This document shows positions 21,421 to 27,177 of a stretch of 52,681 bases of DNA, piece after piece. The first letter of the stretch is position 1. Each line of letters opens with the position of its first letter. Source of the DNA: Limnohabitans sp. (lineage in GTDB: Bacteria > Pseudomonadota > Gammaproteobacteria > Burkholderiales > Burkholderiaceae_C); assembly GCA_021300495.1 (NCBI GenBank), contig JAJTDK010000018.1, positions 1 through 52,681 of the forward strand, in the 5' to 3' direction. A program made the translations under genes and the position numbers. The notes under the pieces were generated by a model. That model searched no databases. It was not told where the DNA came from and saw nothing but the letters and a program-made list of their open reading frames with translations.

Positions 21421-22059
21421 TCAAGTCCCACCCACGTAGGGATTGCTAATGCGCTCACGACCAAATGTACTTTCAGGGCCATGTCCTGGAATGAACACCG
21501 TGTCATCGCCCATGGGCCACAAACGTTGCGTGATGCTGGCAATCAAGGTGTCGTGATCGCCCTGTGGAAAATCAGTTCGGCCAATGCTGCCCGCAAACAA
21601 AACATCGCCGACAAAGGCACGTTTGATTTCAGGCGAGTGAAAAACCACATGACCTGGCGTGTGGCCAGGGCAATGTCGAACGTTCAGTGTGTGTGACCCA
21701 AGCGTCACGGTATCGCCATCGGCCAACCACCGCGTGGGTGTGAAAACCTCGGCATCAGGAAACTGAAACATGCGGCCTTGATCTGACAAACGATCAATCC
21801 AAAACTGATCGCCAGGGTGCGGTCCCACGATGGGCAAATTCAAATTGCGCGCCAAGACGGCCGTGCCACCCGCGTGATCGATGTGCGCGTGGGTCAGCCA
21901 AATTTGCTCGAGTTTCAAGCCCCTTTGCTGGACCTCCGACAAGATCAAGTCGAGATCACCACCCGGATCGATCACGGCTGCTTGTTGGGTTTGATCGTCC
22001 CAAATCAAAGAGCAGTTTTGTTGAAACGGCGTGACTGGAATGGTTTGGTACTGAAGCAT
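21421..22059 (-). CDS. MBL-fold hydrolase, YcbL/glyoxalase-II-like
   Basis: 212-residue metallo-beta-lactamase-fold enzyme. Metal ligands are in THAHIDHAGG (near residue 56), the RHCPGHTPGH histidine (near residue 131), the GDVLFAGSIGRTDFP aspartate, and IPGHGPEST. This pattern is that of the short glyoxalase-II relatives (YcbL) that may cleave S-lactoylglutathione or other thioesters. The HxHxDH set is complete and the length is normal. It is convergent with the M48 gene and divergent from the peptide-secretion locus that starts at 22151, leaving about 90 bases for that locus's promoter. Confidence 0.88.
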   Translation of the reverse strand: MLQYQTIPVTPFQQNCSLIWDDQTQQAAVIDPGGDLDLILSEVQQRGLKLEQIWLTHAHIDHAGGTAVLARNLNLPIVGPHPGDQFWIDRLSDQGRMFQFPDAEVFTPTRWLADGDTVTLGSHTLNVRHCPGHTPGHVVFHSPEIKRAFVGDVLFAGSIGRTDFPQGDHDTLIASITQRLWPMGDDTVFIPGHGPESTFGRERISNPYVGGT

Positions 22060-22150: not shown

Positions 22151-23455
22151 ATGACCACACCACTTTTTCGCTCAGAAGTGACCTTGTCCAAGCAGGCCTC
22201 TTGGATGGGTCCCATTCACCTTGCACACAATCCGCGCTTCACCATCGTAGCCAGCATCGCTTTGGTGCTTTCAGGTGCCTTGTTGGCATTTGGCGCTTGG
22301 GGCAAAGTGGCGCGCAAAGTTCGAGTGCCTGGCGTCCTCATGCCGCAATGGGGCACGGTGGAATTAAGTCCCGCCATTTCTGGTGTGCTGCTTGAGCAAA
22401 GGGTGAAAGAAGGCGACTGGGTTCAACAAGGCCAAGTTTTGTTTGTGCTCAACACCGACAAAACTTCGGCTGAAGGCAGCACAGCCAGCTTGCTGGCTTC
22501 TCATTTGGCGCAACGTCGCAGCACCCTTTTAGCTGAACGCGCCTCGCGCGTTGCTCAAAACCGCCAGCGCGAAGCGCATCTGGCAGATCGCATTCGATCC
22601 TTGTCACTTGAAACAGCGCAAGCCACCCAAGAACAAGCACTGTCAAAGCGCAGGGTTGAGTTGGCGCAAAAAACTTCTGTACGGTTTGAGCAAATGGCTG
22701 CCGAAGGTTTTGTGTCTGACATTCAGGCGCAAGGCAAGCAAGAAGAACTCATTGACCTTCAAGCGCGCTTAGAAAATACACTGCGCAATGGCGTTTCCTT
22801 GGCCCGCGATCACAAGGCCGCCCAAGCCGACTTGGCCCATCTTCAAAAACAGTTGGCCATCGATCTGCTTCAACTCGACCGCAACCTGGCCAGCCTTGAT
22901 CAGGAAACAACCGAAATCAAAGCGCGCAAAACCAGCAGTGTGTTGGCACCCCAAGCAGGCCAGGTCAGCACGGTTCATCTCAGCTTAGGCGCTATGGCAC
23001 AGGCGGGTCAAACCATTGCCAGCTTGGTACCGCAAGCCAACGCACATGCGCCTGATCACTCATCACACACTTTGGTTGCGGCCCTTTTTGCGCCCACCCG
23101 CACCACCGGCTTCATCCAACCTGGTCAAGAGGTGTGGCTTCGCTTGGCGGCCTACCCCTATCAAAAATTTGGTCTGGCCAAGGGTCGCGTGCTCAAGGTC
23201 AGTGGCACGCCCATTGCCCCGCAAGATTTACCGCACGGTCAGGGCACGGCCCTCATGGCCTCCACGCAAAGCAACGAGCCGCTCTACAGAATTCAAGTCG
23301 AGCTGGCATCACAGCATGTCATGGCGTTTGGCCAGACTCATTCTTTGCGCCCCGGCATGACACTCGAAGCCGATGTCATCCACGATGTACGCGGCATTTG
23401 GGAATGGGTCTTCGAGCCCCTCTTGGCCATACACGCTCGCCAACAAACATCATGA
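22151..23455 (+). CDS. HlyD/CvaA-type periplasmic adaptor of the peptide secretion system
   Basis: 434-residue membrane-fusion protein of a type I secretion system. A cytoplasmic N-terminus is followed by one membrane helix at about residues 30-50 (FTIVASIALVLSGALLAFGAWG). Then come the first half of a lipoyl/barrel-sandwich domain (GTVELSPAISGVLLEQRVKEGDWVQQGQVLFVL), a long coiled-coil hairpin rich in Ala, Gln, Leu and Arg (about 100-255), the second lipoyl half (SSVLAPQAGQVSTVHLSLGAMAQAGQTIASLVP), and a beta-barrel ending in LRPGMTLEADVI. CvaA and similar proteins link a bacteriocin ABC transporter to TolC. I chose ATG 22151; a TTG 18 bases upstream is weaker. The stop overlaps the next start as ATGA. 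No TolC gene is in the window. Confidence 0.92.
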   Translation: MTTPLFRSEVTLSKQASWMGPIHLAHNPRFTIVASIALVLSGALLAFGAWGKVARKVRVPGVLMPQWGTVELSPAISGVLLEQRVKEGDWVQQGQVLFVLNTDKTSAEGSTASLLASHLAQRRSTLLAERASRVAQNRQREAHLADRIRSLSLETAQATQEQALSKRRVELAQKTSVRFEQMAAEGFVSDIQAQGKQEELIDLQARLENTLRNGVSLARDHKAAQADLAHLQKQLAIDLLQLDRNLASLDQETTEIKARKTSSVLAPQAGQVSTVHLSLGAMAQAGQTIASLVPQANAHAPDHSSHTLVAALFAPTRTTGFIQPGQEVWLRLAAYPYQKFGLAKGRVLKVSGTPIAPQDLPHGQGTALMASTQSNEPLYRIQVELASQHVMAFGQTHSLRPGMTLEADVIHDVRGIWEWVFEPLLAIHARQQTS

Positions 23456-23991
23456 GTTTCATTCAGAGCATCAGGGCTTCGCACCTCAACCGCCATGGCT
23501 TCATCGATGTTTTGGTAGGCATCACTGTGTTTCAAGCCATCAACATCACCTTGATCGTGTTGTTTGGCAATTTAAACGTCGGGCCAGACGAAGACCCCTC
23601 CATCACCTTGTTGGAAATTGCTTTCTTGATGCTGTTGGTAGCACCCCTCCTAGAGAATTTGTTATTGATTGCGGCGGCAACCCTCCACGAAAAATTGTTC
23701 AACCGAAGCTTGTTGTTTGTTGCGGCACCTTTGTTGTTGACGGCGCTTCACTTCACAACGCCACAAGACCTGCCATTCCCCACGTTCATCCGAGTCATTG
23801 AACTCTTTGGCTTCTTCTCTATTTTTTTAAAACAATACGATTTGCACAAGTTGGAAATAGGCAAATGCAAGGCATTGCTTTTAACCAGCGTTCTTCACTT
23901 TGCAGTCAATGCAACCGTGATTTCCGTCTTGTGTTTATTTGATTTTTATATCGCCGCTGAAACGATTTTTTCAGCACAACCAGGAGATTGA
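23452..23991 (+). CDS. CPBP-like intramembrane protein, candidate microcin immunity or processing protein
   Basis: 179-residue polytopic membrane protein with about five to six hydrophobic segments. It resembles the CPBP (CAAX protease / bacteriocin-processing) family. The second and third motifs are kept: His100 in LTALHF and His149-x3-Asn153 in VLHFAVNA. The first motif, normally EExxxR, is degenerate: Glu68-Asn69 in APLLENLLLIA. CPBP proteins next to bacteriocin genes are known as self-immunity proteins (PlnI, SkkI) in Gram-positives. Placement between the adaptor (ATGA overlap) and the precursor (one base between stop and start) suggests immunity or maturation. Family membership is a motif-based judgement; the role is inference. 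Confidence 0.65.
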   Translation: MSFIQSIRASHLNRHGFIDVLVGITVFQAINITLIVLFGNLNVGPDEDPSITLLEIAFLMLLVAPLLENLLLIAAATLHEKLFNRSLLFVAAPLLLTALHFTTPQDLPFPTFIRVIELFGFFSIFLKQYDLHKLEIGKCKALLLTSVLHFAVNATVISVLCLFDFYIAAETIFSAQPGD

Positions 23992-23992
23992 C

Positions 23993-24193
23993 ATGAGAAG
24001 TTTAAACATTGAAGAATTGAACGAGGTCCAAGGGGGTGGCATATCTGTTAAGTGGGCTTACAAGCTGGGTGATGCCCTATCCAACATGTACATGCTGTAT
24101 GAGGCGTCCCAAAAAATTGAGCTCGAGCCCTCAAGCTATGGCGCTGTCGACGCCAGTGGATACAACGCCATGGGCGACTATTCTGGCAGTTGA
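23993..24193 (+). CDS. Double-glycine leader peptide precursor, class II microcin-like
   Basis: 66-residue precursor preceded by a strong ribosome-binding site (AGGAG at 23982-23986, six bases before ATG). Residues 1-15, MRSLNIEELNEVQGG, match the double-glycine leader consensus at every position (Leu-12, Glu-8, Leu-7, Val-4, Gly-2, Gly-1). They have the same length and outline as the colicin V leader as I remember it (MRTLTLNELDSVSGG). The C39 peptidase encoded next should cut after Gly15, leaving a 51-residue core that starts GISVKWAYKLGD. The core has an aromatic, amphipathic middle, no cysteine, and a net charge near -3 (three Lys, six Asp/Glu). It ends in a Gly/Ser/Tyr-rich tail, SGYNAMGDYSGS. 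It is probably an antibacterial peptide; a signalling peptide is the main alternative. I recognise no named homologue of the core. Confidence 0.85.
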   Translation: MRSLNIEELNEVQGGGISVKWAYKLGDALSNMYMLYEASQKIELEPSSYGAVDASGYNAMGDYSGS

Positions 24194-24239
24194 ACCCACT
24201 AAGCGCTAAACAGTCGCCATTTAAACCGGCAACAGGAAG

Positions 24240-24266
24240 GCCTGCGCAGTGTCTCATTGCGCAGGC
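24240..24266 (+). terminator. Hairpin between precursor and transporter genes, possible attenuator
   Basis: A 9-bp perfect stem (GCCTGCGCA / TGCGCAGGC) with a 9-base loop, extendable by a G-T and an A-T pair, is followed by the T-rich TTGTTTGTCTTT. It lies 46 bases after the precursor stop and 32 bases before the transporter start. The imperfect T run suggests partial termination. That would let the small precursor be made in excess of the transporter, as is common in bacteriocin operons. Confidence 0.6.
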
Positions 24267-24298
24267 TTGTTTGTCTTTACCTCGGAGATAAGACCGCC

Positions 24299-26395
24299 TT
24301 GAACCCCGTCTTGCAACTTCAAACTTCCGAATGTGGCTTGGCTTGCTTGTGCATGATTGCCAATGCGCACGGTCAACATTGGCACCTCATGGATTTGCGG
24401 CATAAGTTTCCACAATCACTCAAGGGCGCCAACCTCAAGCAACTCATCGATCACAGCCTTGTTTTGGGTTTCAATGCCAGGCCTGTTCGCTTGGAATTGG
24501 AAGAGTTGCAGCAACTGCGCATGCCGTGCATCTTGCATTGGGACCTGAATCACTTTGTGGTGCTCCAAAAAATCAATGGCAATAAAATTACTTTGCTTGA
24601 TCCTGCGCTGGGTATCAGGGTTGTATCTCACTCAGAAGTTTCGCAACACTTCACTGGCATCGCCTTGGAACTCACGCCCCAAGCTGACTTTAAAACCAAG
24701 CCCGCACCTAAGGCCTTTCCACTTTCAATGCTCACCGGCAAGCTTCAAGGCTTTGGCAAATCTGCTCTTCAAATATTGGCCTTGGCATTTGTACTCGAAC
24801 TGTTTGCCATCTTCATGCCCATGTTCAACCAAGTCGTGGTAGACGATGTCTTAACCTCGGGTGACCACGAACTGCTTTCGGTTTTGGTTGCTGGCTTTGC
24901 CATCATTCTGCTCATTCAATCTGCACTTTCCTACGCACGCAGTTGGTGGGTCATGGTGCTCAGCCAGAGCGTTTCTATTCAGTGGCTAGGCAATGTGTTT
25001 GCGCACTTGGTCAAACTGCCAGCAGATTGGTTTTCTCAACGCCATTTGGGCGACATCTCTTCCCGCTTTGGCGCTGTTCATGACATTCAAAGAACGCTCA
25101 CACAAACCACCATTGAATCTCTGCTCGATGGCTTGATGGCCATTGCTGCACTTGTCATGATGTTCATTTACTCACCCACCCTCACTTGGGTGGTTTTATC
25201 GGCTTCAGCTTTGTATGCGCTTGTGCGCCTGATCAGTTACTCGCCCTTTAGGCATGCTGCTTCTGAGCGTTTGGTTTTGGCTGGCCAAGAACAGAGTCAC
25301 TTCATTGAAACACTTCGCGCCATGACGCCACTCAAATTGTTTGCACGCGAAAATGAGCGGCGTGCACGATGGCAAAGCCTCATGGTGGAAGTCATGAACC
25401 GCGATTTTCAAACTGCCAAGTTGAACATGGGCTTCAATGTTGCTCGCACACTTATTTTTGGCCTTGAGAATTTGTGCGTCTTTTGGCTAGGCGCCAAAAT
25501 CATTTTGCCATCGCCAACACAAGGCCACAGCGCAAGCGTTTTTACAGTGGGCATGCTGCTGGCTTTCATCAGCTACAAGGTTCAATTTACAAGCCGTATC
25601 AGTGCACTTATCAACCAAGGCATTGAACTCAAGATGCTCAATTTGCACCGTGACAGGCTGGCCGATATTGTGCTCACGCCGCCCGAGCAAGATACGCCCC
25701 ACGGCAACTTGCCTGCTCACGATTTGTCTCATTTGCCTGCCAGTCTCGAGCTTCGCAAGGTTTCATTTCGCTACAGCGAAGCAGAGCCTTGGCTGCTCTA
25801 CAACATGGATCTTTTCATTCAAGCCGGCGAGCATGTGGCCATTACGGGCGCCAGTGGTTGCGGCAAAACCACCTTGCTGAAAATTTTATTGGGTCTGCTA
25901 ACGCCAACACACGGTACCGTCTTGTATGGTGGCGTACCCGTCAGTCAACTGGGCATGACCAATGTTCGACGAAAAATTGGTGTAGTCATGCAAGAAGACG
26001 CTCTGCTGACCGGCAGCATTGCAGACAACATCGCCTTCTTTGACTTGGCACCTCAACTTCAAAGGATAGAAGCCTGCGCGCAATTGGCAGAAATTCACAA
26101 TGACATTGCACGCATGCCTATGGGTTATCACACCCTCATTGGCGAGCTTGGATCTGGTCTCAGTGGCGGTCAAAAGCAGCGTCTGTTATTGGCGCGAGCG
26201 CTCTACGCACAGCCTTCCATTTTGGCTTTAGACGAAGCCACCAGCCATTTGGACATGCAAAACGAAAGCGCTGTTTCAAACACCTTGTCACAACTCAAGC
26301 TCACGCGCATTGTCATTGCGCATCGCCCTGAAACCATTGCCCGCGCAGACAGACACATCAACTTCAGCTTGCCAGGGCTTGCCTCTTCCGCGTAA
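24299..26395 (+). CDS. Peptidase-containing ABC transporter (C39 peptidase, CvaB-type)
   Basis: 698-residue PCAT that cuts double-glycine leaders and exports the core peptide. Start TTG 24299 (MNPVLQLQTSECGLACLCMI) follows a GGAG at 24284; an in-frame TTG at 24257 would start inside the hairpin. C39 domain, residues ~1-140: Gln8 and catalytic Cys12 in LQLQTSECGLAC, His in LHWDLNHFVVL, Asp in LLDPALGIRVV, so the peptidase triad is complete. Membrane domain: ~150-430, opening with LQILALAFVLELFAIFMPMFNQVVVDDVL. ATPase: Walker A GASGCGKTTLL, signature LSGGQKQRLLLARAL, Walker B ILALDEATSHLD. The intact peptidase strongly supports cleavage of the precursor encoded 106 bases upstream. It must partner the HlyD-like adaptor and a TolC encoded elsewhere. 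Confidence 0.95.
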   Translation: MNPVLQLQTSECGLACLCMIANAHGQHWHLMDLRHKFPQSLKGANLKQLIDHSLVLGFNARPVRLELEELQQLRMPCILHWDLNHFVVLQKINGNKITLLDPALGIRVVSHSEVSQHFTGIALELTPQADFKTKPAPKAFPLSMLTGKLQGFGKSALQILALAFVLELFAIFMPMFNQVVVDDVLTSGDHELLSVLVAGFAIILLIQSALSYARSWWVMVLSQSVSIQWLGNVFAHLVKLPADWFSQRHLGDISSRFGAVHDIQRTLTQTTIESLLDGLMAIAALVMMFIYSPTLTWVVLSASALYALVRLISYSPFRHAASERLVLAGQEQSHFIETLRAMTPLKLFARENERRARWQSLMVEVMNRDFQTAKLNMGFNVARTLIFGLENLCVFWLGAKIILPSPTQGHSASVFTVGMLLAFISYKVQFTSRISALINQGIELKMLNLHRDRLADIVLTPPEQDTPHGNLPAHDLSHLPASLELRKVSFRYSEAEPWLLYNMDLFIQAGEHVAITGASGCGKTTLLKILLGLLTPTHGTVLYGGVPVSQLGMTNVRRKIGVVMQEDALLTGSIADNIAFFDLAPQLQRIEACAQLAEIHNDIARMPMGYHTLIGELGSGLSGGQKQRLLLARALYAQPSILALDEATSHLDMQNESAVSNTLSQLKLTRIVIAHRPETIARADRHINFSLPGLASSA

Positions 26396-26396
26396 G

Positions 26397-26492
26397 ATGA
26401 ACACATACAGACACAACCCGTGCCTGCCTGATTGTCTATCTGACACACCCTTTTTCAACGACGGCACCTGCCCCAGATGCCATGCCGCCTAA
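26397..26492 (+). CDS. Possible 31-residue cysteine-rich small protein
   Basis: A 31-codon ORF whose ATG comes one base after the transporter stop (TAAGATG) and whose end overlaps the methyltransferase start by 11 bases. The peptide opens MNTYRHNPCLPDCLSD and closes FNDGTCPRCHAA. Its four cysteines are spaced C-x3-C-x11-C-x2-C, a spacing that could hold a zinc ion. There is no separate ribosome-binding site, so expression would depend on coupling to the transporter gene. I recognise no family. The tight placement on both sides argues that it is real, but so short an ORF may be chance. Confidence 0.4.
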   Translation: MNTYRHNPCLPDCLSDTPFFNDGTCPRCHAA

Positions 26493-27177
26493 CTGCCCCC
26501 ATGGCTATCTAACCAAGCACGAGTCCATCGCCATTCAAGGCGCTCCCAATTTGTTCATTCGATCGTTGCTAGACAAGCAACAGTTTTACGACCCTGAAGA
26601 CGCCGCATTGGCACTGGGTATTTCTTCCGCATTCTGGTCGCTGTTTGGATTGCTGTGGCCCTCAGGTTCGAAATTGGCAGAGCGCATGGCGCAAAGGCCA
26701 GTCAACGCCAATGAACGCATTCTTGAAATTGGCTGTGGCTTGGCCCTGTCTAGCTTGGTGGGGCATCGACGAGGCGCCAACATCACGGCGTCAGACTGTC
26801 ACCCGCTGGCTGGCGAATTTCTGAAAGAGAATCTGCGCCTCAACCATCTAGGCCCCATGAACTACCGACATGGACATTGGGGTGAACACGCCACACAACA
26901 CCAAGACCTCGCTGTGAGCAGCAAGTTTGACTTGATCATTGGCAGCGACATTCTTTACGAGCGCGATGAACGTGGCGATTTGGCGCAGTACATCAATGAA
27001 CACGTTGAAGATCATTCAGAGGTTTGGGTGGTCGATCCCAATCGTGGCAATCGCTCACACTTTCACCGTAACATGGCCGCGCAAGGTTTTGCACTCAGCG
27101 AAGAGGCGCTCGACATTTCTGCCACAGAAAACGTGGCCGCCTACAAAGGCAGAATGCTCACATACTCCCGCGATTGA
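26482..27177 (+). CDS. Class I SAM-dependent methyltransferase (METTL/Methyltransf_16-like)
   Basis: 231-residue methyltransferase with a Rossmann-like SAM fold. Motif I is ILEIGCGLALSSLVGHRRGA near residue 76, followed by the acidic ASDCHPLA, and FDLIIGSDILYE near residue 153. The overall layout (an N-terminal LWPSGSKLAERM before motif I, SDILYE after) is that of the METTL21/Methyltransf_16 lysine methyltransferases. The target is unknown. It overlaps the 31-codon ORF behind the peptide transporter, so it could be part of that operon. It could equally be an unrelated housekeeping gene. No terminator is evident between the transporter and this gene. Confidence 0.82.
   Translation: MPPNCPHGYLTKHESIAIQGAPNLFIRSLLDKQQFYDPEDAALALGISSAFWSLFGLLWPSGSKLAERMAQRPVNANERILEIGCGLALSSLVGHRRGANITASDCHPLAGEFLKENLRLNHLGPMNYRHGHWGEHATQHQDLAVSSKFDLIIGSDILYERDERGDLAQYINEHVEDHSEVWVVDPNRGNRSHFHRNMAAQGFALSEEALDISATENVAAYKGRMLTYSRD

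What the first reader, a model, noticed from the sequence alone, without database searches (positions are those of the whole stretch)
22151..26395. Undescribed class II microcin-like secretion locus in a betaproteobacterium
Seen: CvaA/HlyD-type adaptor, CPBP-like membrane protein, 66-residue precursor with leader MRSLNIEELNEVQGG, hairpin, and a C39-peptidase ABC transporter, all on one strand with overlaps or one-base gaps. The leader has the same length and pattern (MRxLxxxELxxVxGG) as the colicin V leader I remember. The peptidase residues Gln8, Cys12, His and Asp are intact. Known: this trio is how class II microcins are made and exported through TolC. Such peptides are best known from enterobacteria; I recall no described example in Comamonadaceae.
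Basis: partly seen in the sequence, partly recalled or inferred. Interest (0 to 1): 0.9.

Follow-up and report, generated by a model that had tools for sequence, protein, structure and literature searches.

The report
Swappable microcin-like cassette in Limnohabitans
A lake bacterium carries genes that look set to make, export and resist a small antibacterial peptide, and close relatives keep the export machinery but differ in the peptide and its neighbouring membrane protein together, which is what one expects of a weapon and its matching shield.

Summary
Window 22151-26395 holds an HlyD/CvaA-type adaptor, a 179-aa membrane protein, a 66-aa double-glycine precursor, a hairpin and a C39-peptidase ABC transporter with intact Gln/Cys/His/Asp. 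The genus is Limnohabitans. Precursor and membrane protein occur in the same 19 of 90 genus genomes. Among 399 family genomes, membrane-protein hits fall only in Limnohabitans; the precursor has just two weak hits elsewhere (53, 54). The locus sits at one site in one clade; six genomes outside it show a simple empty site (67, 85, 87).

New here: exporter genes are conserved while membrane protein and peptide core diverge together. In G079/G010, adaptor, transporter and flanks average 94-97% identity, but windows fall to 53-82% over membrane gene and precursor leader/core, then return to 98% in the precursor tail (68). That is block exchange of a two-gene cassette, the pattern of a bacteriocin with cognate immunity.

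Best reading: a class IIa-microcin-like bacteriocin with a membrane immunity protein. Toxicity, processing and immunity are untested; the CPBP label is weak. Sibling loci carry microcin-like and phospholipase A2-like cargo; one resembles a class IIb locus. The kind is known; I found no description of this family or its cassette exchange.

The parts
22151..23455 (+). HlyD/CvaA-type membrane fusion (adaptor) protein, 434 aa
   Evidence: Pfam HlyD_3 4.1e-11, Biotin_lipoyl_2 1.1e-9; NCBIfam type_I_hlyD 3.3e-34 and NHLM_micro_HlyD 2.1e-25, both below their curated cut-offs
23452..23991 (+). 179-aa polytopic membrane protein, candidate cognate immunity protein; CPBP/Rce1-like residues Glu68, His100, His149, Asn153 invariant
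   Evidence: AlphaFold2 model all-helical, pLDDT 85.5; found in the same 19 of 90 genomes as the precursor; exchanged en bloc with it
23993..24193 (+). double-glycine precursor, 66 aa: leader 1-15, core 16-66 (51 aa, about 5.5 kDa, pI 4.3)
23993..24037 (+). leader MRSLNIEELNEVQGG, predicted C39 cleavage after Gly15
   Evidence: pattern unique in window; pN/pS 0.25
24164..24190 (+). conserved C-terminal motif N-x-M-G-D and end of the precursor; this copy lacks the terminal Cys-x-Arg that 14 of 20 precursors (this one counted) have, being three residues shorter than its closest relative
24238..24268 (+). 14-pair hairpin between precursor and transporter genes, probable partial terminator/attenuator or mRNA 3' stabiliser
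24299..26395 (+). C39-peptidase ABC transporter (PCAT), TTG start, 698 aa; Gln8 Cys12 His85 Asp101 intact
   Evidence: matches the solved 'ABC-type bacteriocin transporter' 4ry2 (1.3e-84) and ComA 8hf7 (6.8e-75) over peptidase and transporter
21421..22059 (-). upstream flank, MBL-fold hydrolase; left edge of the insertion site
26482..27177 (+). downstream flank, methyltransferase; right edge of the insertion site

Best explanation
The locus makes a small unmodified bacteriocin of the class II microcin type (class IIa-like: no tailoring enzymes in the locus). Shown: the gene set, intact C39 residues, conserved leader, clade-wide maintenance, and joint exchange of the peptide core and the upstream membrane protein. 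Inferred from PCAT biology: the C39 domain cuts after Gly15, and the 51-residue acidic, probably helical core leaves through transporter, adaptor and a TolC-type outer-membrane protein encoded elsewhere (a two-repeat OEP protein exists on contig C70). Inferred: the core acts at the inner membrane of related Limnohabitans cells, and the 179-aa membrane protein gives the producer cognate immunity. Inferred: because peptide and shield must match, they are replaced together as a cassette between the conserved adaptor and transporter genes, giving each lineage its own type. The hairpin probably lets more precursor than transporter be made.
For: Precursor and membrane protein are found in the same 19 of 90 genus genomes, always adjacent. 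Block drop in identity over membrane gene and precursor leader/core, with intact flanks, in G079 vs G010 (68.5% and 76.5% against 94-97% on average) and in G000 vs G044. Mean amino-acid distances: transporter 0.155, adaptor 0.219, membrane protein 0.423, core 0.631; partial Mantel core~membrane given transporter and adaptor r=0.435, p=0.002, while core~adaptor given the others is -0.17 and core~transporter 0.23, p=0.09 (16 of 19 genomes). pN/pS: transporter 0.17, adaptor 0.24, leader 0.25, membrane 0.43, core 0.60. Cassette and exporter trees reject each other (AU p 1.6e-6 and 3e-4). The most variable part of the membrane protein is the loop at 39-52, predicted periplasmic (entropy 2.13 against 0.44 in 126-141, predicted cytosolic; topology is my reading of charges). 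Immunity proteins of class II microcins are 51-216 aa, adjacent and transmembrane (PMC10233263, passages read). Sibling exporters at other loci sit beside microcin-like or phospholipase A2-like genes.
Against: No activity data. The core resembles no described bacteriocin above any cut-off, is acidic (pI 4.1-4.9 in 19 of 19) and is modelled only at pLDDT 67. No gene or segment shows pN above pS on average, and synonymous sites are near saturation in many pairs. Precursor-only data also reject the membrane-protein tree (AU p=0.002), and membrane-protein data reject the precursor tree (3.6e-5), so the two genes are not strictly linked, or the short precursor is noisy. No orphan immunity gene was found in the 90 genomes.
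Confidence: 0.7

Rival explanations
1. Polymorphic signalling pair (pherotype): the secreted peptide is a pheromone and the membrane protein is its receptor or its maturation protease; they co-vary because signal and receiver must match.
For: Co-divergence and joint exchange would look the same. A CPBP-type (CAAX) membrane protein next to a bacteriocin locus is linked to processing of a signal peptide in Streptococcus anginosus (SilX, PMC9298176, passages read).
Against: No kinase, regulator or other signalling domain among the four genes or the two flanking genes scanned; sibling exporters sit beside toxin-like genes.
Confidence: 0.13
2. The membrane protein is a CPBP-type intramembrane protease that trims the peptide, and immunity lies elsewhere or is not needed.
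For: Glu68, His100, His149 and Asn153, the positions that are catalytic in Rce1-type proteases (recalled), are invariant in 19 of 19; 6 of 19 members match Pfam Rce1-like weakly, best E 0.012.
Against: No listed match reaches significance, and the window copy has no Rce1 match at all; profile comparison with 11 genuine CPBP proteins gives probability 0.4%; no CPBP structure among the 50 listed of 105 Foldseek matches, best E 0.18, nor among 10 PDB profile hits, best E 0.17. Processing enzymes are not expected to diverge faster than the exporter.
Confidence: 0.12
3. Non-antibacterial secreted peptide, for example an autolysis or surface/biofilm peptide like the gonococcal Naps.
For: Gonococcal bacteriocin-like double-glycine peptides had no detectable antimicrobial activity and promote autolysis (PMC11798529, abstract and one results section read). 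The 2022 review notes double-glycine peptides with non-toxin roles (PMC10233263, passage).
Against: Naps are cationic while these cores are acidic; cassette exchange with a partner membrane protein is not expected for a self-acting surface peptide.
Confidence: 0.07

Closest known systems
Class IIa microcins (MccV: CvaC, Cvi, CvaA, CvaB, TolC)
   Different: Core not related to any library model above cut-off; chromosomal locus of a betaproteobacterial clade; membrane protein 179 aa and upstream of the precursor; activity untested.
Cdz-like contact-dependent double-glycine bacteriocins (Caulobacter CdzABCDI)
   Same: Type I exporter plus small secreted peptide plus small inner-membrane immunity protein in an aquatic oligotroph (PMC5380434, passages read).
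   Different: No glycine-zipper repeats in the core; one peptide (two only in G089); contact dependence unknown.
Pneumococcal blp bacteriocin/immunity locus
   Same: Bacteriocin and immunity genes with great allelic diversity in one operon (PMC4860687, abstract read).
   Different: Gram-positive, multi-gene, pheromone-regulated (the last recalled); no regulator seen here.
Class IIb siderophore microcins (MccE492, MccH47)
   Same: Sibling loci in other Limnohabitans have an HlyC-like gene (L070, L071) and, in L071, a SelO-like one, as MceI/MceJ and MchD/MchC are (PMC3281104, passages read).
   Different: The window locus has neither tailoring gene.

Membership tests
Class II microcin | precursor with N-terminal double-glycine leader, product under about 10 kDa | tested here: met
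Class II microcin | C39 peptidase ABC transporter with catalytic Cys, His, Asp | tested here: met
Class II microcin | membrane fusion protein in the locus | tested here: met
   (Pfam HlyD_3 above cut-off; NCBIfam models below theirs)
Class II microcin | TolC-type outer membrane protein in the genome | tested here: met
   OEP protein with both repeats on C70; use by this exporter not shown
Class II microcin | adjacent cognate immunity protein, 51-216 aa, transmembrane | tested here: inconclusive
   right size, place, helices and co-variation; protection not tested
Class II microcin | demonstrated antibacterial activity of a Gram-negative product | not testable with these tools
   needs cultures
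Class IIb microcin | C-terminal Ser/Gly siderophore motif and tailoring enzymes in the locus | tested here: not met
   no such gene at 22151-26395; the C-terminus is NxMGD..., 14 of 20 precursors ending Cys-x-Arg
CPBP/Rce1-like intramembrane protease (membrane protein) | Pfam PF02517 match above cut-off | tested here: not met
   6 of 19 weak matches, best E 0.012; none in the window copy
CPBP/Rce1-like intramembrane protease (membrane protein) | conserved Glu / His / His-x3-Asn residues in membrane helices | tested here: inconclusive
   E68, H100, H149, N153 invariant in 19 of 19; motif 1 reads EN, not EE (motif recalled); fold and profile comparisons negative
Cdz-like system | glycine-zipper toxin held at the cell surface | tested here: not met
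   no run of GxxxG repeats; the window core has a single GxxxG, in its tail (by eye); surface location not testable

The most novel reading that the evidence does not exclude
The locus is a self/non-self type determinant of one Limnohabitans clade. A fixed exporter displays one of many interchangeable peptide-immunity types (12 membrane-protein clusters at 80% identity among 16 genomes), exchanged en bloc by recombination between the conserved 5' end of the membrane gene and the conserved tail of the precursor. This would make it a bacteriocin-based strain-recognition system in a freshwater genus, with an immunity protein built on a decayed or repurposed CPBP-like scaffold.
Probability: 0.4. 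Interest if true: 0.7.

Novelty: new member of a known kind. Interest (0 to 1): 0.5.

Why it matters
The 2022 review counted 15 microcins, all from Enterobacteriaceae (PMC10233263: start of abstract in the listing, passages); later work extends candidates to other gammaproteobacteria (PMC13174018, passages). A testable candidate in culturable freshwater betaproteobacteria, with natural cassette types in near-identical backgrounds (G079 and G010; isolates MMS-10A-178 and Rim11 carry the locus), would extend the class and offer a clean system for asking how peptide and immunity specificities evolve together and whether they shape strain coexistence in plankton.

Tried and rejected
Chance ORF: rejected (leader pattern unique in the window, mean 0.07 in 100 simulations; conserved in 19 genomes). 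Precursor lost in relatives that keep the transporter: not seen. Of 22 genomes with a transporter or remnant at this site, 19 have the precursor, two (G026, G064) are cut by contig ends, and G027 has lost the middle of the operon, from about adaptor residue 29 to transporter residue 602, in what looks like one deletion. Mobile element: not supported; both flanking genes are on the stretch in 16 of 18 fetched relatives with the precursor, the other two being cut by contig ends. CPBP family membership: not supported by Pfam cut-off, hhalign, Foldseek or PDB profile search. My first leader pattern was wrongly spaced and found nothing useful; it was corrected. Promoter scan: 3 sites, 3.1 expected, uninformative. 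Structure of the precursor: low confidence. Literature: ten searches listed no paper that I could recognise as describing a Limnohabitans or Comamonadaceae class II microcin. Of the 12 microcin+Comamonadaceae papers, ten were listed; I looked into two: Delftia HK171 concerns a thiazole/oxazole-modified microcin (PMC5334598, passages), and in the Rahnella/Variovorax paper the microcin E492 cluster is in the Rahnella genome (PMC10946135, passages). Only open-licence papers are held.
Full report
WHAT IS THERE. The operon at 22151-26395 (+) reads adaptor (434 aa), membrane protein (179 aa), precursor (66 aa), hairpin, C39-ABC transporter. The first two genes overlap by 4 bases and the precursor starts one base after the membrane gene. 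The membrane gene's last codons contain the precursor's probable ribosome-binding site (sequence), which may explain their conservation (entropy 0.56). The transporter's likely start is the TTG at 24299, because residues before it are not conserved. The genome (2.43 Mb, 132 contigs, 86% complete) has one C39 gene and a TolC-type OEP protein elsewhere.

DISTRIBUTION. In 90 genus genomes the precursor is found in 19. Its profile finds the same 19 strongly, plus four genomes with E 0.013-0.084; one of these, G012, is the leader of a different microcin-like peptide described below, and the other three I treat as chance. The membrane protein is found in exactly the same 19. In 399 family genomes of 141 genera, some of them Limnohabitans, the membrane-protein profile hits 2 (both Limnohabitans) and the precursor profile hits 4, two of them weak and in other genera. 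The downstream methyltransferase was found in 75 of 90 genomes. It is at least 82% identical in 21; 18 of these have the pair, G026 and G064 have the transporter on a cut contig, and G027 has the remnant. It is at most 70% identical in the other 54, none of which has the pair. G052 has the pair but its contig ends before the methyltransferase. So the locus belongs to one clade. Of 11 fetched sites from genomes without it, six have the MBL-fold gene and the methyltransferase about 100-140 bases apart, one has about 1 kb between them, one is rearranged, and three show no MBL gene on the short stretch. The operon is therefore best read as an old insertion at this junction, kept since. G027 has lost nearly all of it by an internal deletion.

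WHAT VARIES. Among 16 of 19 genomes (three dropped as broken or cut), mean protein distance is 0.155 for transporter, 0.219 for adaptor, 0.423 for membrane protein, 0.316 for leader, 0.631 for core and 0.342 for precursor tail. In all 120 pairs of these 16 both membrane protein and precursor are less alike than the transporter. The clearest case is G079 against G010 (a single-contig genome): upstream 95.9%, adaptor 96.6%, membrane gene 68.5%, precursor 76.5%, transporter 95.5%, downstream 94.2%. Windows of 120 bases fall from 93% at the start of the membrane gene to 53-82% and return to 98% inside the precursor tail; elsewhere they stay between 88 and 100%. Synonymous differences jump too (transporter 0.165, adaptor 0.101, membrane 0.598, core 0.433), so this is replacement by recombination, not fast amino-acid substitution alone. 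G079 is a fragmented assembly, so a misjoin in it cannot be excluded, though the block would still be a second natural type. G000 against G044 shows the same shape (66.5% and 52.7% against 81-88%), while G000/G063 shows no drop and G039/G032 only a mild one in the precursor (84.0% against 91-93%). Exporter and cassette trees reject each other's topology. Against strict linkage: precursor data alone also reject the membrane-protein tree (AU p=0.002) and membrane-protein data reject the precursor tree (3.6e-5), so there may be exchange within the cassette, or too little signal in 66 codons. No gene or segment shows mean pN above pS, so I claim diversification by exchange, not proven positive selection.

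READING. Peptide and neighbouring membrane protein that occur together in every genome where either was found, change together and are swapped together between fixed exporter genes are most simply a toxin and its cognate immunity. Published criteria for class II microcin immunity genes (51-216 aa, adjacent, transmembrane; PMC10233263, passages) are met. Steps shown: gene content, catalytic residues, conservation, co-occurrence, exchange. Steps inferred: cleavage after Gly15, export, killing, immunity. The core is 46-56 residues, acidic in 19 of 19, with a predicted helix at low confidence and a conserved N-x-M-G-D motif (20 of 20). 14 of 20 precursors end in Cys-x-Arg; the window's copy lacks that end and is three residues shorter than its closest relative, G063. 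The tail lies outside the exchanged block in the G079/G010 case, so its conservation may reflect recombination edges as well as function. G089 has two precursors on either side of the membrane gene, which could be a two-peptide form.

THE MEMBRANE PROTEIN. It has a confident all-helical model (pLDDT 85.5). Glu68, His100, His149 and Asn153 are invariant in 19 of 19, which recalls CPBP/Rce1 proteases, but Pfam, hhalign, Foldseek and a PDB profile search do not support membership. CPBP-like proteins beside bacteriocins are reported to serve immunity, leader processing or signal maturation (PMC9298176, passages), so the label would not decide the function.

SIBLING LOCI. More distant exporters of the same kind elsewhere in other Limnohabitans sit beside other genes in the same slot. 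L069 (G071): a double-glycine protein with a prokaryotic phospholipase A2 domain (9.8e-14) followed by an unknown protein. L080 (G054): a phospholipase A2-like protein (0.001, below cut-off) without a clear leader. L075 (G011): a 139-aa double-glycine protein with a TraB/GumN-type neighbour (1.4e-23). L071 (G012): a 61-aa microcin-like precursor, a 166-aa hydrophobic protein, an HlyC-like protein (1.3e-6, above cut-off) and a SelO-like protein (2e-4, just below cut-off). MceI and MchD are acyltransferases of the HlyC family PF02794, and their partners MceJ and MchC are SelO relatives; the pair serves siderophore attachment in class IIb microcins (PMC3281104, passages). L071 is therefore a candidate class IIb-like locus in a betaproteobacterium. 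Outside the genus, 33 of 37 named loci were scanned for leader ORFs and by eye 13 of the 33 (exporters 33-51% identical) hold a double-glycine leader ORF nearby, among them Janthinobacterium, Massilia, Undibacterium and Roseateles.

NOVELTY. The kind is known. Class II microcin-like and Cdz-like loci outside enterobacteria have been predicted before, Burkholderia cepacia included (PMC5380434, passages), and class II candidates from Pantoea, Erwinia and Xanthomonas have been screened (PMC13174018, passages). What I did not find in ten searches of an open-licence library, read mostly as listings, is any description of this family, of class II microcins in Limnohabitans or Comamonadaceae, or of cassette exchange at such a locus in betaproteobacteria.

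Noticed in passing
L071:8709-11885 (-) and L070:4792-7280: Candidate class IIb (siderophore-microcin) type locus in Limnohabitans G012: microcin-like double-glycine precursor, 166-aa hydrophobic protein, HlyC-like and SelO-like genes, C39 exporter; G009 has the HlyC-like gene but, by eye, a transposase-like ORF, and I recognised no precursor in the slot.
   Followed up: partly
L069:467-850 (+): Double-glycine leader fused to a prokaryotic phospholipase A2 domain, next to a C39 exporter 71-72% identical to the window's; a further unknown ORF follows.
   Followed up: partly
L068:3924-4895 (-): G089 has two different precursors, one on each side of the membrane protein gene.
   Followed up: partly
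L260:8956-9363 (+): G027 carries a deletion remnant: about the first 28 adaptor codons followed by the last 110 transporter codons; membrane gene and precursor are gone.
   Followed up: yes
window 24164-24193: The window's precursor lacks the terminal Cys-x-Arg found in 14 of 20 precursors and is three residues shorter than that of its closest relative.
   Followed up: partly
L055, L054, L070: Transporter genes of G076, G086 and G009 carry in-frame stops, and G086 also in the membrane protein: decay or assembly errors.
   Followed up: no
L130:1059-3376 (-): Undibacterium rugosum record with five different short double-glycine leader ORFs in 2.3 kb near a related exporter.
   Followed up: no
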